Assembly: GCF_000189635.1 (NCBI RefSeq)
Contig: NW_002476418.1
Coordinates: forward strand, 1-64,000
Direction of reading: 5' to 3'
DNA from: Tetrahymena thermophila SB210
Lineage: Eukaryota > Ciliophora > Oligohymenophorea > Hymenostomatida > Tetrahymenidae
Length of the DNA stretch: 64,000 nt
The notes under the pieces were generated by a model that was not told where the DNA came from, did not search any database, and worked only from the letters and a program-made list of their open reading frames with translations. This document shows, piece after piece, positions 35,468 through 62,700 of this stretch (positions within the stretch are counted from its first letter, which is position 1; each line of letters begins with the position of its first letter). Made by a program: the position numbers and the translations under genes.

Positions 35468-38400
35468 ATGGTAAAAAAAAATAAACTAATCATCAGTTAT
35501 AGAAATATTATATTAATATTCAATATAACTCTTTTAATTGCTTAATCAGCAAGTAACCAATGCATAAGTAATTGTTTAGTGTGTTAGGGATAAAAATGTT
35601 TATAATGCAATTAAGACTATATTTTGAATAGCTCATTAAACATTTGTGTTTATCAAAATTGCCAAAAAGGTATGGCTTTGTAGCAAGCAATTGATTCTAC
35701 TGGATAAATTTAAAATAAGTGTGTTGCTATTTGTTAGTAATAACAATATTTGAATGGATTGACTAATACTTGTTAGTCATTAAGTTAATGCTCTTCATCT
35801 TATTTTACTTCTACTAGCAGTACTACTAACTCTAATAACATTATTGATTTAAAAATGTTAAATGATAGCAGCCTTTTAGCATTTTACTCAAATTTTATGT
35901 CACAGATTAGAGTTGATACAGGACAACTCGAATTAAGTCTTAGCTATGGAGCATAAGCAATAAAGTCTTAATATTTTAATGGTTTGTATTACATATTTAA
36001 GACAGATAACTCTATTATTCTGTGGGAAGTAGAGTTTGATAAAAAATTGTTAGTCTCTTAAATTTAATTTGGAGTCAGTATAAGTGATAGCCAGATAATT
36101 AATATTAGTGAATTAATTGGTGCTTATTTAACGTTTGATGTCTTAAATTCAATAATATATATCAACCCACTAATAGAATTAGTTAATAATCAAATTTTAT
36201 AAAATAAAATTCCTTTAAAAATATCATATGCAAACAATAGTTATTTTATCTAATAGAATTTGATTTTTGTTTTTTCCTCTCAAAGTCTTAAGGTATAAGT
36301 AATTGAAACTGATTAATCTTTTAAATTAACATCTACAGTTTTGCTTTAAGTAAACAACTTTGCAAATTCATTTTAAAATGTTATTAATGCAATTTACCAA
36401 AATGCGCAAAATGTTTTTTTTATAATTACATAAAATGCTTCTTTTGTATATAGATGCAAAATATCATCTTGCAGTACTGTAAGTTTACCTTCATAACCAA
36501 AAAAAATGATATAATCAGAATCAAGTTAATAAAAATTAAATATAATAATTTAATGCTATTTAAGTTTATTAATATTTGATGACAACTTAACTATTGTTCA
36601 ACAATTTAACTTTGATAATCAAATTTTAGATTTCACAATTTCTTATTTCTCCTAAAACAGAATGAGAGAAATTTATTTGCTTTCTAACAACTAATAACTT
36701 ATAATCTATTAAGAAACATAGTAAATAAATTAAATTTTGTTTGTTAAAACAGATTAAATAAAAGTCTATTCTTAATAACTGCAAAATTTGATTACCGTTA
36801 ATTAAGATAATGGAATAATTAATTATTTGGCTATAATTGGTAACGGACTCTAAATTATAAGTAAATCTAATAATCAACAACAATAATAATAGAAATAAAT
36901 TATCTCATCTTAATTTTAGCCAAATTATATTACTAACTAAGGAATTGTTACAGATATTCTTATCTTTGATGATTTAAACGCTTTAGCTACTTGCTCAAAA
37001 GAGGGAAGATTGTTTGTGTGGGATATAACCAAAGTGTATGATGCTTAATTTAGCTATCTTTATTATAATAACCAAGATAGCTGCTTAAAGTTATATAGGT
37101 TATCAATTTATTAGATAATTGCTCTTTTCTAAAATACTATTGTCATCTTAGATATAAGATAGTCAACACCTTTAAAAGTAATTTAGAAAAATAATCCAAA
37201 TCCAACAAAAGAATTCATTACCTCTAATAAAAATTTAGGAATTCTAATTTATGATGGAATCCTAAACTGTATTAAAAATGATGGTAGCTTACTATTTTCA
37301 ACAAATGATCCAAGCTTTACATAAAATATATATAATATATATATAAGCTACAATAATCTCCTATTCTTTTAATATTAAAACTAAATGAAGGTATATAAGG
37401 TAGATCCTACTTAAAATACAATCTAAAATCAAATGACACTTTTTTCAACTTACAATAGTCCAAGTAAAGTAAATATTTAGCTCTCAAAAATTAAACCTTT
37501 TCCAGAGTCACTTTATTCCTCAGTAGGATATACTTTTGAAGTAGTTATTTTTGATACAAGTTCTTCCTTTTATATTTTCGATGAATAATTTCACGTTTTA
37601 TAGCAAGTTAATCAAGTTCCATTAATTTCAGCTGTTGATTTTAATTTCCTTATTTCTAACCCCTTAGATCCAAATTATTTTGTGATGGGATATACGACCT
37701 AGCAGACAGCGGCATTTAAATTTTAGGTTTATAATATTTAAAAAGGAGTAAATGCTGCTAATTTAGCTGCATTTATAGTTTCAGGATCTTATCTGATGGA
37801 GCCACGAAAAGTACCAAATAAACCGAGTTAGTATGATCTTGAAATTGTAATTCCTTTGAGCTATTTTACTTCGAATAATGTCTTCAGATATGATACGAAT
37901 GTGGCAGCAAATGTATTCTAAATGGGGAAACAAATATAGAATGAAATTCAGTCAATCTATAAAACCTTTCCAGATTTATCATATAATTTTTTTGGAGGAT
38001 AATCAGGATTTGTCGGAATATCACCTTTAAATACAAATTATGTTAAGCAGGTTTTTTCTCTTTCTTCCAATGACATTATAAATGTTTAATAATGTTACAG
38101 TTTAGGAGTTTATTTTGTAATTTCTAAAAAAATTTAAATAGTAAATATCCACACAAATAGCTTGATAGAGGAAATCATATTTAAAGACACTACACAATAA
38201 TCAGTTCAGGGATTTTAAATTTTTGCTGATTTATAAATAGCAATTGCCTTTAAATCTTCATAGCTAATATTAAAAAATTTTAAGGATGGACAAACTTATT
38301 CCTATACAAACATAAATAACTTATCTTTTTACAATTTAGAAAAAGAAAATCAATTGATTACTATCTTTGGGTCAAAAGTAGTAAAGTTACAATTAAATTT

Positions 38401-41400
38401 AAATGAATATTAGTAAATCGGAGCTCTCATTTTGTAAAATAACTACATTGTTGGATGTGTATTATCTTCAGTAAATTACTATTGTAAATTATAGGATGGA
38501 TCTATCAATATCATAACCCAAAATAAATTAAGCATATTGAATTCAATTTAAAACAAATTTTTAGGAAATAATTATAATTTTTAGTTAGATGAAACAAACA
38601 ATTAACTCTTTTTATTTAATACATCTATTTTTGTTTATGATTTGACAGGAATTTTTTAGATTTAATTAACACAGTCGAATGGCCTGATAAGTATATTTAG
38701 CTTATGTACTAACGACATATCATATGTAACAGCCTCAAGTAATTTTTATTAATTTTTTATTTATTAAATTAGTCATTTAGTGTTTATTTTATTAATCAAT
38801 TTCAATATTCTAATTAAAAAAAATAAATTTAGGTGTCACTGTTATGCAAAGAGGTAGTTTAGTAGTAAGAACAGTTATCAGTAGTCCAGGTGGAGGTAAT
38901 ATCGTATAATTAATGTACTTACCGAATTAGAATCACATATTGTTCTTCACAACTCAAATGAGATTTGGATAAATATTTGTATACAGTTTGAGTACACTTT
39001 TGTAAGTAACTTCTATAAAAAATACATACACCTAAAATCCAATTTCTCTAACATGTGCTATGATTTATGACATTTTTCAAAATTATCTTGTATACATAGA
39101 TCTTACTGGGAATATTCTCATTATTTCTTACACTGGGGCATATTCTATGGTTAATTTTTTAAAAATGAACTAATTTGATGATGGTTTTAGTGCTCCTATT
39201 GGGTTTTCTTTAGACTTTGATATGAATAACATTCTTGTTTACAGCAGTTCAAATGTCTTTTAAATTCCTTATTCTTCTATCAATTTATGGTACAACAGGA
39301 TAATTAATTATCCTAAAAATTAATACTTTGCTTTAAACAGTGGATAAAATTCTGAGCAGTATTTCATTGTTGGTACATAGAACATTCTTTATACTTATTA
39401 GAATAATCAATTTTAAAGTTTCAACTACTTTAATGAAGATGATCGTTTAAGTTCAGTCAGCTATATTCCTGATTAGCAACTCTTAATAGTCGGTTTTACT
39501 CAGTAAATTAATATCTATTAACAATTTTCTTCAAATAACTTATCTCTTAGCAATAAAGTAATTATCACAGGTTATAAGTTGAAAGAATTTATTACTCCAA
39601 ATATTTTTTTGACTTTTGAAAATTCTATAGTAGATTATAATTTTTAGTAAAATTCTGAGAATTATAAAATAACATGGAATTTAGGTGTTTCTATAACAAG
39701 CTATTTATGGCTTAATTCTTCTTCACTTATTATTGTAGGATTTAATACTGGAGATCTCTTATTTTACAATTATTAATTATAAAAATAAACCAATATAAAT
39801 GTAGATTCTACTCCTATTATTTTTATTTAAGAAGGACTGAACTCAATTTGGGCTTGTTCAGTTATAGGGATTATATAGTAAATCAGCACATCTTCTCAAT
39901 AAACTACCTAAACTTTTAACTTGGCTTCTATTGTAACTCTCTAATAAGCAGATAAAATAAACGTCTTTTCAATAGATGAATAAAATTAGAGAATTTTTGT
40001 TAGTCTTTTAGAATAATATTTATTATATATATTTTCTTACTCAACTTAAGCTTTGCAAATACAGTAATATTTGAGCTTCCCACACCACGAAAAGAATAAT
40101 ATTTATTTTTCTAAAAATTATCTTATCATGTATTCAACATCTTAAATAAATATTCACAATAGGTCAAGTTTACAGTTTTTAAAAAGTTTAAAAAGAGAAA
40201 ATGTTTATGATCAAATAATGTCTATTTACTTTGTAAATGAGACCTATTTAATAATACCATTCTAGAGGAAACTTGAGTTATACTCATATGATGTTATTTC
40301 TAACACTATGCAATTTTTAGATCAAATAATAACAATATTACCTTAAGTCATAAAAACTCAAATCATATCTAATGGTTAATAACTATAGCTAATAGGATTT
40401 TCTAACAATATGGTATTTGAAAATAGATACTCTGTTCAATTGATAAGTAGCCAATCTACTTAATGCAGCCTAAATATTGATGTTTAAGATTATACCAGTA
40501 CTTAGCAACAGCTTTCATTAATACCTCCTACTACAGTTCCTTATTTTACATGGTAGAATAGGATAACTGTTACTTCTTCTAATAGTAATAATTATTTTTA
40601 TATGAACATGTTTTCAGATAATTTAGATTTAGTGAGTACTTCATCAACTTAAAATACTCTCCTTGTAATATAATCTCCTATTAATAGTAACAATAATTTA
40701 ATAAATGGCATGCAGACAATAAGTTTAAGCAATTAAATTTTCGCTTAGTTTTCTAAATAGTAAGTATTATTAAACAGCTTATAATTTTAATTAATTGATA
40801 CAAGTAATTATCAGTCAAGTATAGTTATTGCTTTCAATTCTTTTGTATAACAGGTGAGCTTCTAAAATATTGTACTTCCTAACTAAAAAACTCTTTCTTA
40901 AGCACAATTTTAGTTTAAAAATATGAAAACTATTGTTTTCAATAATATTGTCATAGATAAATGGAATTTACTTTAAAATCTAAGAAATCTATAGCAATAA
41001 TAACAAACAGCTTCTCAACTTTCAAGTTAAAATTCAGGCTTTTTTAATTTCTAAAATTGTAGTAGTGTTTATTTATATGGAATTTCAATTAAAAATTCTA
41101 TCATAAATATTAGTAATTTTTCTACACTATTCTTATTCAACACAATTAACGAAGTTATTTTGGAAGACTTTTATGTAGAAAACTTGTAAACAATTGTATA
41201 ATTAGCCACATTTTAAAATGTCTAAAAAATAACAATAAAAAACTTAACAATAAGTGATTCTTAATTCCTTTTATCTAAATAAAGCAGTACTAGCTTAAAT
41301 TAATTTATAATCTAAATTTCAGGCTGTCAAAATACTATTATATAAAACTCTTTATTTACTTCAAATTAAAATATGCTCTTTTTAAATACAAAAAATTACA

Positions 41401-46557: not shown

Positions 46558-49500
46558 ATGGAAAAAAAGAACAAACTAATCATCAGTAATAGAAATATCA
46601 TATTATTATTGAGTATAACTTTTTTAGTTGCATAACCAGGTAATGGCGAATGCATCAGTAATTGTTTAGTGTGTTAGGATCAAAAATGTTTAGAATGCTT
46701 TTAAGACTATACTTTAAATACTTCATTAAACATTTGTGTTTACAAAAATTGCCAAAAAGGTATGGCTTTGTAGCAAGTAGTTGATTCATCTGGAGTAATT
46801 GAAAAAAAATGCGTTGCTATTTGTTAGTAATAACAATATTTGAATGCATTAACTAATACTTGTTAGTCATTAAGTTAATGCTCTTCATCTTACTTTACTT
46901 CTTCTAGTAGTACTACTAACTCTAATAACATTATTGATTTAAAAATATTAAATGCTAGAAGCCTTCTAGCGTTTTACTCAAATGTTGTGTCGCAGATAAG
47001 AGTTGATACAGGTTAACTGGAATTAAGTCTTAGTTATGGAGCTTAAGCTATAAAGTCTTAATATTTTAACGGTTTGTATTACATATTTAGGACAGATAAC
47101 TCTATTATACTGTGGGAAGTAGAGTTTGATAAAAAATTGTTGATCTCTTAAATTTAATTTGGAGTCAGCATAAATGATAGTCGGATAATTAATATTAGTG
47201 AATTAATTGGTGCTTATTTAACTTTTGATGTCTTAAATTCAATAATATATATCAACCCATTAATAGAATTAGTTAATAATCAAATTTTATAAAAGTAAAT
47301 TCCTTTAAAAATATCATATGCAAATAATAGTTATTTTATTTCTTAGAATTTGATTTTTATTTTTTCCTCTTAAAGTCTTACAGTTTACGCCATTGATACT
47401 GACTAATCTTTTAAACTAAAATATACAGCTTTACTTTAAATAAACAACTTTGTAAATTCATTTTCAAATGTCATAGATGCAATTTATCAAAATGCGCAGA
47501 ATGTTTTTTTTATAATTACATAAAATGCTGCTTTTATATATAAATGCAAAGTATCATCTTGCAGTACAGTAAGTTTACCTTCATAACCAAAAAAAATGAT
47601 GTAATCAGTATCAAATTAATAAAAATTAAATGTATTAATTTAGTTTTAGTTAAATTTATCATTATATGATGATAACTTAGTTATTATTCAATAATTTAAT
47701 CTTGAAAATCAAATTTTAGATTTCACAATTTCTTATTTCACTTTAAATAGAATGAGAGAAATTTATGTGCTTTCTAACAACTAATAACTTAAAATCTATT
47801 AAGAAACATAGTAAATGAATAAAATTTTATTTATTCAAACAGATCAAATAAAAGTCTATTCTTAATAACTGCAAAATTTGATTACTCTTAATTAAGATAA
47901 TGGAATAATTAATTATTTGGCAATAATTGGTAACGGACTCTAAATCATAATTAAAGCTAATAATCAGCAATAATAATAGAAATAAATTATCTCATCTTAA
48001 TTTTAGCCAAATTATATTACTAACTAAGGAATTGTTACAGATATTCTTATCTTCAATGATTTAAATGTTTTAGCTACTTGCTCAAAAGAGGGAAGATTGT
48101 TTGTGTGGGATATAACCAAAGTGTATGATGCTTAATATAGATATCTATATTACAATAACCAAGATAGCTGTTTAAAGTTATAAAGGCTTTCAATTTATTA
48201 GATAATTGCTCTTTTCTAAAATACTATTGTCATCTTAGATATAAGATAGTCAACACCTTTAAAAGTAATTTAGAAAAATAATCCAAATCCAACAAAAGAA
48301 TTCATTACTGCTAATAAATATTTAGGAATTCTAATTTATGATGGAATCCTAAACTGCATTAAAAATGATGGTAGCTTACTATTTTCAACAAATGATCCAA
48401 GCTTTATTTAAAATATATATAATATATATATAAGCTATAACAATCTCCTATTCTTTTAATATTAAAGTTAAATGAAGGTATATAAGGTAGATCCTACTTA
48501 AAATACAATCTAAAGTCAAATGACACTTTTTTCAACTTACAATAGTCCAAGTAAAGTAAATATTTAGCTATCAAAAATTAAACCATTTCCAGAGTCACTT
48601 TATTCCTCAGTAGGATATACTTTTGAAGTAGTTATTTTTGATACAAGTTCTTCCTTTTATATTTTCGATGAATAATTTCACGTTTTATAGCAAGTTAATC
48701 AAGTTCCATTAGTATCAGCTGTTGATTTTAATTTCCTTATTTCTAACCCCTTAGATCCAAACTATTTTGTGATGGGATATACGACCTAGCAGACAGCAGC
48801 ATTTAAATTTTAGGTTTATAATATTTAAAAAGGAGTAAATGTTGCTAATTTAGCTGCGTTTATAGTTTCAGGATCTTATCTGATGGAGCCAAGAAAAGTA
48901 CCAAATAAACCGAGTTAGTATGATCTTGAAATTGTAATTCCTTTGAGCTATTTTACTGCAAATAATGTCTTTAGATATGATACTAATGTTGCAGCAAATG
49001 TATTCTAAATGGGGAAACAAATATAAAACGAAATTCAGTCAATTTATAAAACCTTTCCAGATTTATCATATAATTTTTTTGGAGGATAATCAGGATTTGT
49101 TGGAGTATCACCTTTAAATACAAATTATGTTAAGCAAGTTTTTTCTCTTTCTTCGAATGACATTATAAATGTTTAATAATGTTACAGTTTAGGTGTTTAT
49201 TTTGTAATTTCTAAAAAAATTTAAATAGTAAATATCCACACAAATAGCTTGATAGAGGAAATCATATTTAAAGATACTACACAATAATCAGTTCAGGGAT
49301 TTTAAATTTTTGCTGATTTTTAAATAGCAATTGCTTTTAAATCATCATAATTAATATTGAAAAATTTTAAGGATGGACAAACTTATTCCTATACAAACAT
49401 AAATAATTTATCTTTTTACAATTTAGAATAAGAAAATCAATTGATTACTATCTTTGGTTCAAAAGTAGTAAAGTTACAATTAAATTTAAATGAATATTAG

Positions 49501-52500
49501 TAAATCGGAGCTCTTATTATGTAAAGTAGTTATATTATTGGATGTATATTATCTTCTGTAAATTACTATTGTAAATTACAGGATGGATAAATCAATATCA
49601 TCACCAAAAATAATTTAAGCATTTTGGCTTCCATTCAGAACAAATTTTTAGGAAATAATTATAATTTTTAGCTTGATGAATCAAATAATTAACTCTTTTT
49701 ATTTAATACATTGATTTATGTTTATGATTTGACAGGAATTTTTTAGATTTAATTAACACAGTCGAATGGCCTAATAAGTATATTTAACTTATGTACTGAC
49801 GATATATCATATGTAACAGCCTCAAGTAATTTATTAATTTTCAATAAAAAATAATGGATATTTAGTTTTTACTTATTAATTTCAATATTCTAATTTTAAA
49901 AAAATAAATTTAGGTGTCACTGTTATGCAAAGAGGTAGCTTAGTAATAAGAACAGTTATCAGTAGTCCAGGTGGAGGTAATATCCTATAATTGATGTACT
50001 TACAAAATTAGAATCACATATTATTCTTCACAACTCAAATGAGATATGGATAAATATTTGTATACAGTTTGAGTACTCTTTTGTAAGTAACTTCTATAAA
50101 AAATACATACACCTAAAATCCGATTTCTCTAACATGTGCTATGATTTATGACATTTTTCAAAATTATCTTGTATACATAGATCTTACTGGGAATATTCTC
50201 ATTATTTCTTACACTGGAGCATATTCTATGATTAATTTTTTAAAAATGAACTAATTTGATGATGGTTTGAGTGCACCTATTGGGTTTTCTTTAGACTTTG
50301 ATATGAATAACATTCTTGTTTACAGCAGTTCAAATGTCTTTTAAATTCCTTATTCTTCTATCAATTTATGGTACAACAGGATAATTAATTATCCTAAAAA
50401 TTAATACTTTGCTTTAAACAGTGGATTAAATTCTGAGTAGTTCTTTATAGTAGGTACTTAGAACATTCTTTATACTTATTAGAATAATCATTTTTAAAGT
50501 TTCAATTACTTTAATGAAGATGATCGTTTAAGTTCAGTCAGCTATATTCCTGATTAGCAACTCTTAATAGTCGGTTTTACTCAGTAAATTAATATCTATT
50601 AACAATTTTCTTCAAATAACTTATCTCTTAGCAATAAAGTAATTATCACAGGTTATAAGTTGAAAGAATTTATTACTCCAAATATTTTTTTGACTTTTGA
50701 AAATTCAATAGTAGATTATAATTTTTAGTAAAATTCTGAGAATTATAAAATAATATGGAATTTAGGTATTTCTATAACAAGCTATTTATGGCTTAATTCT
50801 TCTTCACTTATTATTGTAGGATTTAATACTGGAGATCTCTTATTTTACAATTATTAATTATAAAAATAAAACAATATAAATGTAGATTCTACTCCTATTA
50901 TTTTTATTTAAGAAGGACTGAACTCAATTTGGGCTTGTTCAGTTATAGGGGTTATATAGTAAATCAGCACATCTTCTCAATAAACTACCTAAACTTTTAA
51001 CTTGGCTTCTATTGTAACTCTCTAATAAGCAGATAAAATAAACGTCTTTTCAATAGATGAATAAAATTAGAGAATTTTCGTTAGTCTTTTAGAATAATAT
51101 TTATTATATATATTTTCATATTCAACTCAAGCTCTGAAAATATAATAATATTTGAGCTTCCCACACCACGAAAAGAATAATATTTATTTTTCTAAAAATT
51201 ACCTTATCATGTATTCAACATCTTAAATAAATATTCACAATAGGTCAAGTTTACAATTTCTAAAAAGTTTAAAAAGAGAAAATAATTTCGATCAAATAGT
51301 GCAAATTTACTTTGTAAATGGGATTTATTTAGTAATACAATTCTAGAGGAAACTTGAGTTATATTCATATGATGCTATTTTTAACTCTTTACAATTTTTA
51401 GATCAAATAGTTACAGTGTTACCATAAGTGATTAAATTTCAAATCATATCTAATGGTTAATAACTATAGCTATTAGGATTTTCTAACAATATGGTATTTG
51501 AAAACAAGTACACAATTCAATTAGTGAGTCATCAATCTACTCAATGTAGCATGAGTATTGATGTTTAAGATTATACCAGTACTTAGCAACAGCTTGCATT
51601 AATACCTCAAATTACAGTTCCTTATTTTACATGGTAGAATAGGATAACTGTTATTTCTACTAGTAGTAATAATTATTTTTACATGAACATGCTTTCTGGT
51701 AACTTAGATTTATTGAGTGCCTCTTCAACTTAAAATACCCTCCTTGTAGTATAATCTCCTATCAATAGTAACAATAATTTAATCAATGGTTTACAGACAA
51801 TAAGTTTAAACAATTAAACTTTTGCTTAGTTTTCTTAATAGTAGCTATTATTAAACAGCTTATAACTTTAATTAATTGATACGAGTAATTATCTATCAAG
51901 TATAGTTATTTCTTTTAATTCATTTGTAAAGTAGGTGAGTTTTTAAAATATTGTATTTCCTAACTAAAAAACTCTTTCTTAAGCACAATTTTAATTTAAA
52001 AATATGAGCAATATTGTTTTCAATAATATTGTCATAGATAAATGGAATTTAATTTAAAATCTAAGAAATCTTTAGTAATAATAACAATAAATTTAGCAGC
52101 AATCAAGTCAAAATTTAGGCTTTTTTAATTTCTAAAATTGTAGTAGCGTTTATTTATATGGAGTTTCAATTAAAAATTCTATTATAAATATTACCAATTT
52201 TTCTACAATATTCTTATTCAACACAATTAATGAAGTTGTTTTGGAGGACTTTTATGTAGAAAACTTGTAAACAATTGTATAATTAGCGACATTTTAAAAT
52301 GTCTAAAAAATAACAATAAAAAACTTAACAATAAGTGATTCTAAATTTATTTTATCTGAATAAAGCAGTACTAGCTTAAATTAATTTATAATCTAAATTA
52401 TAGGTTGCCTAAATACAAAGATATTAAACTCTTTATTTATATCTAATAAAGATATGCTCTTTTTAAATACAAAAAATTATTTCACAATTAACTAATAATT

Positions 52501-56718: not shown

Positions 56719-59700
56719 ATGAAACTTTTGAAAGTTATTATAGGATTAAATATTATATTTTCAATAAACCAAATACTAGTAACTGGATAATGCTTATAAA
56801 ATTGTTTGATTTGCAATAACCCGCTTTCTTGCGCTTAATGTGAGGAAGGATTTGTTTATGATTACTAGAAAAATATTTGCTCTTTTGCATCATGTAGGGA
56901 TTAGCTAGCTATTTCAGAATTTTAAGACTCTTAAGGAAATAATTATTCATAATGTGTTTCTATCTGCTAAAACTCATTTTTCAGAAATATCCAAGATCAT
57001 GTCTGTTAGTAGCTTTAACAGTGTTCATCATAGTATTTCGTATCAACATCTTTTATCTCCAGATAAGGAGGCGCTTAGTAGATTATTTTGTATCAATCTA
57101 ACTACTTCCTAGTATTATACAATTAAATGGCTGATTATATTAAAAAGTCAAACGGATAATTAGAGTATTCGATTAAGTATGTAGATAATATAATAAAATG
57201 GTAATATTTTAATGATCAAATTTACTTTTTTAGTAATAACAACTAAATAATATTTTGGGATGTTAATTTAAATGTGTAAACTCCAATACTATAAGTTTTA
57301 TAAGGTCAAATCATACTTGATAGTGTTATAATTTAATCAAACTCTCAAATTGGCTGTTTACTAGCATTTAACTTAGAGAAATCATTAATCTATATTTATC
57401 CTTTTCTTGATATATTATCATCGAATTTTATTTCTTCACCTCAACCATTAGAATTATCATTTAACAATAAGGTATTTTTTGTAATTAAAAATTAAATATT
57501 TTTAACAACATAATAATCGATAGAGATATTTGCATTAGAAAATGATTCAAGTGGTAAAACTTAAGTAAAAAATATCTAGATATGTTAACTTGATAAAGCT
57601 AGTAGTACAAATATTAGCATCATAGATTAAGTTTACATTTAATAAATGAACACATTTTACTTAATATTAAATGGTATTTAAGGAATAGTAGTATGTGATT
57701 AAATAAATACAAATATTATCTTAACTAGCTAACAACCTTCTAAACTACAAATTTTCAACAGTTATCTAGCACAGCCGCTTATTTTAGTGCTTTATACTGA
57801 CTCTATAATAATTTATCACAAACTTGAGTCCATTTAAACTATATAAGCGGTTTAAAACCAGAAAATTATTGATTTTTCGTTTATCTAAATAAATAATTTT
57901 ATAAATGAATTATATTTACTACTTAGCTCACAATAAATTTAAATTTTTATTGATAATTAATAAAACTATATATGGGAATCGGAAGAAAATTTCTTAAGAC
58001 TGATAAATTTTACGATTATCCCTATTTATTAAATATAGCGATTCGATGTTTCAATATAAACTTTATGATAACGATTTGATCGATAAGTACCGACTTCATT
58101 TTCAATTTTAAAATCGGATCGCAAAAAATCATAAATCGGTAAGATTATGATACGATTCCCACATATAAATAAAACTACACTTCTCAGCTTGTAAATTTCT
58201 TGTTAACAGAAAGCATTTCCATTAATTCTGCTTAATTTAATAGTTTAAATACAGTATTTACTAGTGATTTTTCAGAAATATATTTAGCTGTTTTAGGATT
58301 AAATAGTTTTTAAGTTATTAATAGAAATAAAATTCAACTAAATTCAAATAAACATGAATAGTTTGTATTTTCTCCTTTTTAAGTAATGCCAATAACTAAC
58401 ATAGCTACTATTAACGATATTTTAATTTTAGAAGATCTAAATTTGGTATTAAGTTGCTCTTCTGATGGATTTATTTTTATTTTAGATAACACCCATAGAT
58501 ATAAGACGATACTTAATTTTTAACTTTAAGTTGCTGAAGATCAATGTCTCAAATTATACAGATTTACTACTACAAATATAATCGCTCTATTTTAAAATAA
58601 AATTATAATTTTTGATGTATCGTAAGGTTTAATTAGATCCACCATTTAGAAAAAAAATCCTGACCCTTCTAATGAATTTATTAGTTGTAGTAACAATTAA
58701 GCTGTAATGATCTATGATTAGAGTTTAAATTTAATCGACTCAGATTTTAATGTATTGCTTCAAATTTAATCAAATAGCGAATTTATAAATATTTAAATGA
58801 TATATTTCTATATAGATTCTACAATTTTCATTTAACAAACCTCAAACATTAGTATTTATCAGATTGATTTGACTTAGACTTAGCAATAATATAAAATAGC
58901 TTTAAAATATTAGTATCAATTTAGATAAAGTGAGATATAAATTGCTAAGATAAAATAATATCCTCTACCAATTTAACAAAGTATAAATTACTAGTTTGAA
59001 ATAGTTGTTTTTGATTCTTAATAAAATTTTTACATTTTTGATAATAAATTAAATCTTCTGTTTTAAATAAGAAACATTCCTATTCAGGAAGCATTAGATA
59101 TTAATTTTTCATTAAAATATCCTTTAGATCCTACTTATTTTGTTTTTGGAATTACCTCTTAATTGGGAATTTCCTTTCCTTATTAAGTTTATACTTTAAC
59201 TAAAGGCTCTTAAATTTCAAATTTTGCTGCAAGTCTTGCTTATGGTACAGGTATGATGGAGCCTGTTTTAAATTATGATGACTAAGGGAATGTTAAATCC
59301 TATTAGATTACCTTAATTATGCCTCTAAATTACTTTACCTTGAACAATGTATTTAGATACTTCCCATTAAGTCAATCCAATAATTTTTATACAACTTTAT
59401 AAATTATTTACGAAAATTAGACATCTAACTAGGTTTATCAAGATTTATCATACAACTATATTGGCTATCAAAGCGGGTATTTAGCAGTTGTACCTATTGT
59501 AAATTCTTTTTCTCAATTAGTACTAAAAGACACATAAAATGATATAATTAATGTTATTTAGAATTTTTCAGTGCAAAAATATTTTGTAATTTCGAAAAAA
59601 ATTCAAATTTATAATATCCATAATAACCAATTAATAGAAGAAATAATTTTTAATGACTCAAATACATATTATGTCAGATAATTTTAGCTATTCCCTGAGT

Positions 59701-62700
59701 AATAACTTTTTATTGCTTTTAAATCAAATTAACTTTTAATGAAAAACTTACAAACAAACCAAACATTTTCATATGAAAATATAACATCAATAAATATATA
59801 TTTTTTAGAAAATAATTTTATAACTGTTTTTGGTAGCAAGATTGTTTAACTTAACCTAGATCTAACAGAAAAATCTTCGGTTAATTAAATAAATATTTAA
59901 AATAATTTACCATAAAATGCAATAAGTTCATCTCTCTATTATTATTGTAAATAATAAGATGGAAATTTATTGATTTTAAATAAGCAGAACCTTTAAATCA
60001 TAGTTTCAGTAAAAAATAAATAAATTGGACTAAATTATTAAATCTTTCTAGATGAGTAAATGAATAATCTTTTTCTTTATAATTCTATTCTTTATATTTA
60101 TGACTTGAAAGGAGTGAATCAAAATAAACAAATAGACGTAAGTTATTAAATTAATTAGATACAAATATTGAGACAGTACTTATGCGTTATCAATTCAGCA
60201 AGTAAATCATTATTAATTAATTGTTATTTGCTTATTTTTTTTAAATAATTATTTTTGAATTAAGCGCAGTATATTTAGGTGGGAAATTTTTTGAATAAAT
60301 ATATTTATGAATTTAAAAATACTAATAGAATATAATTTTTTTTTTTTGAAAAAAGAGTGAAATTATGACTTTTTATGCTTTTACCTTTATATCATGCAAT
60401 ATTATGCTGATTAACTCTTGAAAAATATTTAAATTAGAATTATTTCAGTAATTTAAATTTTACCTAAAGTCAAATAAAAAAATATATTTTTATTAAACAA
60501 AACTTTAGCAAAGCTTATTATAAAATAATAAATTATGTTTGTCTTTCAAAGTCATAAATAATTAATTTAAATCATATTAAATAGATGTAAATATCTTATA
60601 GAGATAGACACTTATACAGTAAGCAAAATATCTAAACTCAAAAGGTGGATAGATAATTAACGTAAAATATATAGATGAAGTTTAATATCTATTTATATGG
60701 ACTAGCTTGACGAGATATTCTTAGATTACAGTTTACAGTATTTAAACATTTACAATAGTTTAAGAGATAAAAAATACATTTATTCAGAATAACCCATCAG
60801 TTGTAGTTGATTTATCTTTTGATTTGGCTTCGTTTTAAATTATTTATTTAGATAACACTGGAAATATAAATTGTTTTGGAATGGATACTTTTGATTAAAA
60901 TTGTGTTTTTAAAATGAGCGAATTTAGTGATTAAAATATCCTTCCTATTGGTATGACGATAGACTATGAAACGAATAATATATTTGTCTACAGCTCTAGT
61001 AATATTTATTAAATAAGTTATGCTGCACTTTATATGAGATTTAGCAGGATCATACATTATAAATAAAATCAATTCATAAAGATTAATGGTTTGACACCGA
61101 TTTAAAATTACTTTTATGTGATTAATTCTAATAATATCATTTATTAGTATCAAAATTAAAACTTTTCTTTTTTAAATTACTTTGATGAATAAGACACTTT
61201 ATAATAAGTTGTTTATATTCAAAGAATTACTACTCTTATTGCTAGTTTTCAAAATATTATTAATGTTTATCCTCAATTTACTCCATATAGCCCTGATTTT
61301 AATAAAAAAATAACAATTTCTGGTTATAAATTTAAATAATTTTTATCAGATAATATTTTTATCACAACAGATGGCTCTTTAGTTGATTATGATTTCTAGA
61401 ACATCAAAGAAAATTTTAGATTAACTTGGGGATCAACAACAAGAACAACAGTTTATCTAAGCATTAGTTCTATTAATTTAATTATAATAGGTTTGTATTA
61501 AGGCAATTGTATAATTTACAACTAAGAATCTAAAGTTTATAATTAAATAAAAATAGATAGCAAGCCTATCTAATATATTAGCTCTACTGAAAATTATTTT
61601 TGGATTTGCTCTTCAGGTGGAATTGTTAATTAATTAATAAATAAAACAAAGTAAGTAGCATAAACTTATGATATAGGTTAGATTATATAGCAACAAGTGA
61701 GTGGTATGATAGGTGTTTTTGAAATTGATGAAGTGAATACCAGGTTATTTACACATATTATTGAACAGAAGCTTATTTATGTAATAAATTACTCTCAATC
61801 TTAATATCAGATTTCATATCTAAGCTTTCCTTTTAATAGCAATTGCTAGATTTAAATTAGTCTAAATTTTGTTTTGTTTTACAGCAGTTTCTAAATAAAT
61901 ATTCATAATAGATCAACTTTGTAAATCTTAAGAAGCTTAAGAAGAGATATAAATTCTGATGAAATTAAATTTCTTAATTTTCTATAAGAATAATTTTTTG
62001 TTATCTGTTTTTTATAAAAATTTGAAATATTTTACTACAATTATACATAAAATAATATTACCATGATAGATTAAGTAATTACTGCAGCACCTTAAATTAT
62101 GGATATAGATATTATATAGGATATAAACGATCAACTCTAGGTCATAGTCTTTTCTTAGGATCTCTTTTTTGTAAAAAGGTATACAATTAGTCAAATTGTA
62201 TAAAATTAAATATAGTGTAGTGCGATTATTTAGGTTAGTGATTACATTAATACTTAACTGTAGCTTTCTTTAATTCAAAAACCTCTCTAACCATCTATTA
62301 ATTGGAGAAATATGATATAATAATAATAAATTAATTCAGATGCTTAGCAATATTTTTTAATACTTCAAAATGGAAATTTAAATTATATAAATTCTCTTCT
62401 TATTTAAAGTGGTGAATTAGTAATTTCTTCTGATCCTAGTATTAATAAATATGTTTAGCTCTTGATTTAATAGCAATCTTTTACATCATTCTAAAAGACA
62501 GGCTTAAATCTCAAAAATTTTGAGTTTATTTTTGATATTAATGAAATGCAATCAACATAAATAAATCTCTCACAAAATATTTTAAATGTTAGGTTTTAGA
62601 ATATTAATATACAGAATTCAAATAATATGAATTAAGTGTAGCTTAATTTTTTTAACCTCAATAAAGTGGTATTCTAAAACTTAATAATAGATGGGTAGAA

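What the first reader, a model, noticed from the sequence alone, without database searches (positions are those of the whole stretch)
57959..58175. Precise inverted-repeat insertion in an exon whose removal restores the frame
A 201-bp element with 15-bp inverted ends sits between two copies of aataaaac inside exon 1 of giant gene 3 and brings an in-frame TGA. Removing the element plus one target copy (209 bp) rejoins the codons for D-N-Q-Q-N-Y-T-S and leaves exon 1 at 3274 nt, phase 1, the same phase as both paralogues. Either a MITE inserted very recently, or this is germline DNA and the element is deleted precisely during macronuclear development. Exact excision inside an exon would be unusual, because most known Tetrahymena deletions are imprecise and intergenic.
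Basis: partly seen in the sequence, partly recalled or inferred. Interest (0 to 1): 0.85.

Follow-up and report, generated by a model that had tools for sequence, protein, structure and literature searches.

The report
Small transposon breaking a somatic gene
A short, recently inserted mobile DNA element interrupts a protein-coding exon in what looks like the working (somatic) genome of Tetrahymena thermophila; a near-identical sister copy breaks a second gene, so this looks like an ordinary jumping-element insertion in an unusual place rather than a programmed, precisely removed sequence.

Summary
Window 57967-58167 is a 201-bp element with 15-bp inverted ends (14/15) between two perfect 8-bp copies of AATAAAAC. 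It puts an in-frame TGA into exon 1; without 209 bp the frame aligns with two paralogues. A genome search found one other near-identical copy (198 bp, another contig). It has its own 8-bp duplication, TACAATAC, and splits a UBR-box exon. A neighbouring paralogue, 91% identical, shows the empty site with one target copy. That demonstrates insertion by cut-and-paste transposition: it is a MITE (short non-autonomous transposon). A 459-bp element with related ends splits a third long ORF. The assembly looks macronuclear: telomere arrays on three contigs looked at, including this contig's far end, and almost no chromosome-breakage sites. So the element appears retained in the soma. It also lacks the TTAA/CACTTT ends of known precisely excised Tetrahymena exon IESs. 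Programmed precise excision is therefore not supported; recent insertion is. Related elements are hAT-like, but this one fails the recalled hAT end consensus. Open: how intact MITEs came to sit in somatic exons.

The parts
57959..57966 (+). left copy of the 8-bp target-site duplication AATAAAAC
   Evidence: perfect 8/8
57967..57981 (+). left terminal inverted repeat TATATATGGGAATCG
57967..58167 (+). 201-bp MITE; 97% identical to a 198-bp copy at G000:C116:234897-235094 (identical outside one block, 7 bp here for 4 bp there, at about 58096-58102)
58066..58068 (+). in-frame TGA inside the element; ends the gene 3 reading frame after 449 codons
58153..58167 (-). right terminal inverted repeat TATATGTGGGAATCG (14/15 to the left end)
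58168..58175 (+). right copy of the target-site duplication AATAAAAC
56719..60201 (+). exon 1 of the interrupted gene 3 (3274 nt without the element and one target copy; candidate donor GTAAATCA at 60202, phase 1)
35468..38738 (+). exon 1 of paralogue 1, uninterrupted (3271 nt, candidate phase 1 donor at 38739)
46558..49825 (+). exon 1 of paralogue 2, uninterrupted (3268 nt, candidate phase 1 donor at 49826)

Best explanation
It is a miniature inverted-repeat (non-autonomous, cut-and-paste) transposon that was inserted recently, with an 8-bp staggered cut, into exon 1 of one of three tandem paralogues of Tetrahymena thermophila (or an extremely close relative). Shown: inverted ends, 8-bp duplications, two independent insertions, a paralogous empty site for the second copy, and presence in an assembly with macronuclear features. 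Inferred: it was moved in trans by a transposase encoded by a full-length relative, probably micronucleus-limited. It was then not recognised by RNA-guided DNA elimination, perhaps because it is short, low-copy in this assembly and inside a gene, and so was carried into the macronucleus, where it truncates the protein. Once in the macronucleus, a copy would be expected to protect its germline counterpart, because scnRNAs matching the parental macronucleus are removed. The superfamily is most likely hAT-like, but this is not proven.
For: The genome search returned two places, 97% identical, each with a different perfect 8-bp duplication. The neighbouring paralogue C116:238684, 90.8% identical over 1822 aligned bases, carries GTATTGTA once and no element. 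Both genes are otherwise open at the site: 1152 and 1046 codons stop-to-stop without the element. The UBR-box domain split by copy 2 scores 32 bits on the upstream piece and 47.8 bits when rejoined. dN/dS between that gene and its nearest paralogue is 0.39 over 554 codons, as for a gene under constraint until recently; see also against. Macronuclear features: telomere arrays at the start of C4 and again from 465614 on (C4's length was not seen), at both ends of C156 and at the right end of C129; the recalled breakage-site core occurs once exactly and 60 times with one mismatch, against 92 for the reversed control. Species: TERT exon residues equal those of PDB chain 6d6v, recalled as T. thermophila, apart from exon edges and intron-derived stretches. 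A third element, ends TAGACATGGGAATCG and duplication GGAATTAT (8/8), splits an ORF of at least 1199 codons. Seven places over Pfam's cut-off for the hAT dimerisation domain show that hATs have been in this genome.
Against: No transposase with matching ends was found, so the mover is unknown. The end (TATAT) does not fit the recalled hAT consensus. dN/dS against the other paralogue in L039 is 0.58 over 804 codons, less clearly constrained; the two paralogues give 0.36 between them. No reads were available, so retention could be partial among the many macronuclear copies. The contig's left end (window base 1) has no telomere array, and C116 has none at either end.
Confidence: 0.86

Rival explanations
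1. A precisely excised exon IES: the element is germline DNA cut out exactly during macronuclear development, and the assembly shows an unexcised (micronuclear or partially retained) form.
For: Both near-identical copies and the 459-bp relative lie in long ORFs, and exact removal of element plus one target copy restores each frame. T. thermophila has about 12 precisely excised exon IESs that produce few if any scnRNAs (PMC5666084 passage). Neither end of C116 and not the left end of C129 carries a telomere array.
Against: The assembly has macronuclear features and still holds the element; one search found no empty-site contig. The known coding-region IESs have TTAA repeats and CACTTT ends (PMC5182062 passage); this one has AATAAAAC and TATATATGGG.
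Confidence: 0.07
2. Somatic transposition: the MITE jumped within the macronucleus during vegetative growth and was fixed there by random assortment of macronuclear copies, so the micronucleus lacks it.
For: Near-identical copies in tandemly duplicated genes of a macronuclear assembly. Loss of one member would be tolerated in redundant families (inference).
Against: No transposase-length frame was seen at the seven hAT domain places, three of which carry a TGA inside the match; introns were not modelled. Germline insertion followed by retention needs fewer steps.
Confidence: 0.07
3. A new intron (introner-like): the element is removed from RNA, not DNA.
For: Between 57900 and 58260 one GT-AG pair (58048-58187) would skip the TGA and keep the downstream frame; 124 such pairs exist with donors from 57500 and acceptors to 58500.
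Against: The near pair does not follow the element's ends: it would leave 81 bp of the element in the exon and take 12 bp of host sequence beyond the second target copy. The donor context GATGTTTCAATA is poor. The first GT inside the element is at 58048, 81 bp from its left end.
Confidence: 0.03
4. Assembly artefact.
For: No reads could be inspected.
Against: Perfect target duplications at three sites, a paralogous empty site and intact flanking frames are not what mis-joins produce.
Confidence: 0.02

Closest known systems
MITEs of class II cut-and-paste transposons (e.g. hAT MITEs)
   Same: Short, no room for a transposase, imperfect inverted ends, 8-bp target duplication, near-identical copies at unrelated sites.
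   Different: Only two near-identical places found in this assembly. Ends begin TATAT rather than the recalled hAT form; no cognate transposase found.
Precisely excised exon IESs of T. thermophila (Tpb1/Tpb6-dependent)
   Same: Short element with inverted ends and a direct repeat, inside an exon; exact removal would restore the frame.
   Different: The six described in PMC5182062 have TTAA repeats and CACTTT ends (passage). This one has an 8-bp duplication of varying sequence and is present in an assembly with macronuclear features.
Transposon-derived sequence retained in the T. thermophila macronucleus (about 1 Mb; PMC5182062, section 15 read)
   Same: Transposon sequence not eliminated from the soma.
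   Different: That section suggests that incomplete IES excision sometimes leaves terminal sequences in the macronucleus. Here whole elements with perfect target duplications sit inside coding exons.
Blepharisma MITE-derived IESs (BogoMITE, 'MITIES'; PMC9942856 passages)
   Same: Ciliate MITEs inserted across a genome.
   Different: Those derive from a Pogo/Tigger transposon with a TAA duplication and are IESs, that is germline-limited; this one is in an assembly with macronuclear features.

Membership tests
MITE (non-autonomous DNA transposon) | terminal inverted repeats | tested here: met
   14/15, the same in both copies
MITE (non-autonomous DNA transposon) | target-site duplication that differs from site to site | tested here: met
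   AATAAAAC and TACAATAC; empty site in a paralogue of the second gene
MITE (non-autonomous DNA transposon) | short, no coding capacity for a transposase | tested here: met
   201 and 198 bp, too short for a transposase
MITE (non-autonomous DNA transposon) | mobilised by a related autonomous element | tested here: inconclusive
   seven hAT domain places in the assembly; a scan of the ~10 kb around each showed no convincing matching ends, and a target duplication was looked for, by eye, only at C184; the micronuclear genome was not available
hAT superfamily | 8-bp target-site duplication | tested here: met
   three elements with 8/8
hAT superfamily | ends starting YARNG (recalled consensus) | tested here: not met
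   this element starts TATAT at both ends. Among relatives: both C9 ends (TAGTG, TAGAG) and one C156 end (TAGAG) fit; the other C156 end (TAGAT) and both C348 ends (TAGAC) miss the fifth letter
hAT superfamily | target consensus nTnnnnAn (recalled) | tested here: not met
   AATAAAAC and TACAATAC have A, not T, at position 2, and A at position 7; GGAATTAT has G at position 2
Tpb1/Tpb6-type exon IES | TTAA direct repeat and CACTTT ends | tested here: not met
   AATAAAAC and TATATATGGG; definition from PMC5182062 passage
Tpb1/Tpb6-type exon IES | absent from macronuclear DNA | tested here: inconclusive
   present in an assembly with macronuclear features and no empty-site contig found, but reads were not available, so partial excision cannot be excluded
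spliceosomal intron / introner | GT...AG at or near the element's ends | tested here: not met
   first GT inside the element is 81 bp from its left end

The most novel reading that the evidence does not exclude
A small family of 8-bp-duplicating, hAT-like MITEs is active in T. thermophila and lands in exons that reach the macronucleus: all three elements found with perfect duplications split long open reading frames. They either escape RNA-guided elimination as a class, or are cut out exactly from only part of the macronuclear copies by an enzyme other than Tpb1/Tpb6, which would make them a second kind of exon IES.
Probability: 0.12. Interest if true: 0.75.

Novelty: new member of a known kind. 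Interest (0 to 1): 0.42.

Why it matters
In Tetrahymena 95% of putative transposon sequence is removed from the somatic genome and IESs are rarely in coding sequence (PMC5182062). Young, complete MITEs inside somatic exons of the model species give defined sites, with a sister copy, an empty site and exact junctions, at which escape from scnRNA-guided elimination, or somatic transposition, can be tested by PCR. They also warn that such genes may be strain-specific null alleles.

Tried and rejected
Precise developmental excision: set aside as the main reading because the assembly looks macronuclear and the ends differ from known exon IESs. Intron: within 57900-58260 one frame-keeping GT-AG pair, poorly placed; 124 in the wider stretch tested, not examined one by one. 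Empty-site contig in the same assembly: one search with the joined flanks matched only the window site itself, in two halves. Autonomous partner: no obvious matching ends around the seven hAT domain places; a candidate pair around the C184 place showed no target duplication by eye; inverted-repeat lists were made for four of the seven and showed only A+T-rich pairs among the five longest of each.

Further copies: a search with the 201 bp gave two places (the tool calls such counts lower bounds). All 34 RTGGGAATCG places plus 3 near-matches were examined (37 of 37). Three elements have perfect 8-bp duplications. C156 and C9 have 7/8 with 1 and 3 end mismatches; an 86-bp candidate at C114 has 7/8 with 4 end mismatches. 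Older-looking pairs without a good duplication are L019 and L020 on C110 (4 and 5 end mismatches, 4/8 and 6/8), L028 on C134 (3 mismatches, 4/8) and L016 on C67 (3 mismatches, 2/8). The rest have no convincing partner. Removal gives no ORF gain at C156 (250 to 229 codons) or C114 (530 to 347) and a small one at C9 (167 to 261). The 87 places at up to 2 mismatches to TAGAGATGGGAATCG are fewer than the reversed control's 103, so most are chance; only those that fall in the 37 were examined. The 459-bp C348 element has no other full copy; a 72-bp stretch at C396 is 79% identical.

ATCG/CGAT enrichment: weak for this element (96 of 2000 simulations reach it), strong for C348 (1 of 2000), absent for C156 (608 of 2000). 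Three of three perfect-duplication elements in long ORFs is suggestive but not significant: 68% of this window lies in ORFs of at least 300 codons and the genome-wide coding fraction was not measured. A PDB search with the downstream piece of the UBR-box gene found nothing.

Literature (open-licence papers only). Tetrahymena + hAT + micronuclear + DNA transposons + transposase: 0 papers. Tetrahymena + MITE + macronucle + transposable element + inverted repeat: 7 papers, of which I opened one, for passages. hAT-term search: 121 papers hold 2 of 6 terms; none of the 20 listed holds 'Tetrahymena'. PMC5182062: 'hAT', 'MITE', 'mariner', 'Merlin', 'Mutator' have 0 occurrences in the main text; its supplementary repeat library was not seen. 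PMC10868616 and PMC6564038: passages only. Searches: listings only, apart from the papers named here. No claim is made that the family is absent from print.

Full report
Observation. Element 57967-58167 (201 bp) lies between AATAAAAC at 57959-57966 and 58168-58175; its 15-bp ends match at 14 positions. The upstream frame from 56719 runs into a TGA at 58066-58068, inside the element. Without the element and one target copy, the frame reads ...FIDNQQNYTSQLVNFLL... and aligns through with the two upstream paralogues. Exon 1 becomes 3274 nt at a candidate GTAAATCA donor at 60202, phase 1; the corresponding candidate donors of the paralogues give 3271 and 3268 nt, phase 1. A scan for perfect 8-bp direct repeats around 80-600 bp with matching 15-bp ends (at most 2 mismatches) finds this one place in the window; 20 simulated windows gave five, none with 5 or more G/C in the end.

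Where the window comes from. The genome G000 has 101,022,631 bases in 445 contigs; the window is C129:1-64000. A telomere-repeat search gave 4052 + 4512 overlapping matches, of which the capped list shows contig C4: an array from its first bases and another from 465614 on (C4's length was not seen). C156 has arrays at both ends and C129 at its right end; C116 has none at either end, and the window's own start has none. TERT residues from 404 of chain 6d6v onwards are matched without change until an unspliced intron, and again beyond it until the exon's end; that 6d6v is T. thermophila is recalled. The 14-base core of the chromosome breakage site (recalled) occurs once exactly and 60 times with one mismatch, against 92 for the reversed control; breakage at such sites makes about 225 macronuclear chromosomes (PMC10868616 passage), so a micronuclear genome should hold on the order of 200. 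I conclude that this is a macronuclear assembly of T. thermophila or an extremely close relative.

It is a transposon. A genome search with the 201 bp gives two places: itself and C116:234897-235094, 97% identical. That copy is 198 bp, flanked by TACAATAC twice; the two copies are identical except for one block, 7 bp here for 4 bp there. On the gene's strand it splits an ORF into pieces that make 1046 codons when element and one target copy are left out. The split falls in a UBR-box zinc finger: 32 bits on the upstream piece, 47.8 bits rejoined, nothing on the downstream piece. UBR-box paralogues lie in tandem on C116. The one at 238684-239097, 90.8% identical in DNA over 1822 aligned bases, carries the target GTATTGTA once and no element. 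This is a paralogous empty site, and it shows insertion with duplication of 8 bp. dN/dS between the interrupted gene and that paralogue is 0.39 (554 codons), against a second paralogue 0.58 (804 codons), and between the two paralogues 0.36 (360 codons). The first figure fits a gene under constraint until recently; the second is less clear.

Relatives. I examined all 34 places with RTGGGAATCG in the genome and 3 near-matches (37 of 37). A third perfect case is C348:28251-28709, 459 bp, ends TAGACATGGGAATCG/TAGACATGGGAGTCG, duplication GGAATTAT 8/8; it splits an ORF of at least 1199 codons. It has no other full copy in the assembly. Shorter elements of 132 and 127 bp at C156 and C9, with similar ends, have 7/8 duplications. 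The C156 element does not interrupt a long ORF; at C9 removal gives a small gain, 167 to 261 codons. A search for a junction-spanning paralogue of the C348 gene found only the gene itself.

Which superfamily. The 8-bp duplication and the TAGNNATGGGAATCG-type ends of the relatives resemble hAT elements, and seven places in the assembly exceed Pfam's cut-off for the hAT dimerisation domain, three of them with a TGA inside the match. But this element itself begins TATAT, against the recalled hAT consensus YARNG, its targets do not fit the recalled nTnnnnAn, and no transposase with the same ends was found. I therefore file it as a MITE with hAT-like relatives, superfamily unproven.

Programmed excision? 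The six coding-region IESs described in PMC5182062 have TTAA repeats and CACTTT ends (passage); the exon IESs depend on Tpb1/Tpb6 (PMC5666084 passage). This element has neither sequence. It is present in the assembly, and one search found no empty allele among its contigs. Splicing is also unlikely: the only frame-keeping GT-AG pair within 57900-58260, at 58048-58187, does not follow the element's ends. About 1 Mb of putative transposon sequence is already known to be retained in the T. thermophila macronucleus (PMC5182062 section 15), so retention as such is not new; whole elements with perfect duplications inside exons are the unusual part.

Mechanism proposed. A transposase acting in trans moved the MITE in the germline with an 8-bp staggered cut (duplication and empty site shown; enzyme and nucleus inferred). 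The insertions hit members of tandem gene families, whose loss may be tolerated (families shown for copies 1 and 2; tolerance inferred). The elements were not eliminated when the macronucleus formed (shown for the assembly; fraction of copies unknown). Because scnRNAs matching the parental macronucleus are degraded (PMC5666084 passage), a retained copy should go on being retained (inferred).

Limits. No reads, no micronuclear sequence and no other strain were available. All three perfect-duplication elements lie in long ORFs, but with three cases and a high coding fraction this is not significant.

Noticed in passing
L064:2252-2710 (G000:C348:28251-28709): 459-bp element, ends TAGACATGGGAATCG, perfect 8-bp duplication GGAATTAT, rich in ATCG/CGAT, interrupting an ORF of at least 1199 codons; single full copy found in the assembly.
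   Followed up: yes
L039 / G000:C116:215723-239097: Tandem array of UBR-box genes, one interrupted by the sister MITE and one stretch (219271-219627) with TGA inside the match.
   Followed up: partly
L043-L049 (C46, C112, C184, C131, C445, C8, C31): Seven places over the Pfam cut-off for the hAT dimerisation domain in the assembly; three (C46, C184, C8) have a TGA inside the match.
   Followed up: partly
window 58096-58102: The only difference between the two MITE copies is one block, 7 bp here for 4 bp in the C116 copy; one event rather than scattered point mutations, cause unknown.
   Followed up: no
G000:C336:157004-157017: One exact copy of the (recalled) chromosome breakage core in an otherwise macronuclear-looking assembly.
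   Followed up: no
L040 (C156:24439-24570) and L009 (C9:665198-665324): Short 132- and 127-bp elements with TAG-N-N-ATGGGAATCG-like ends and 7/8 duplications, both mismatched at the last base.
   Followed up: partly
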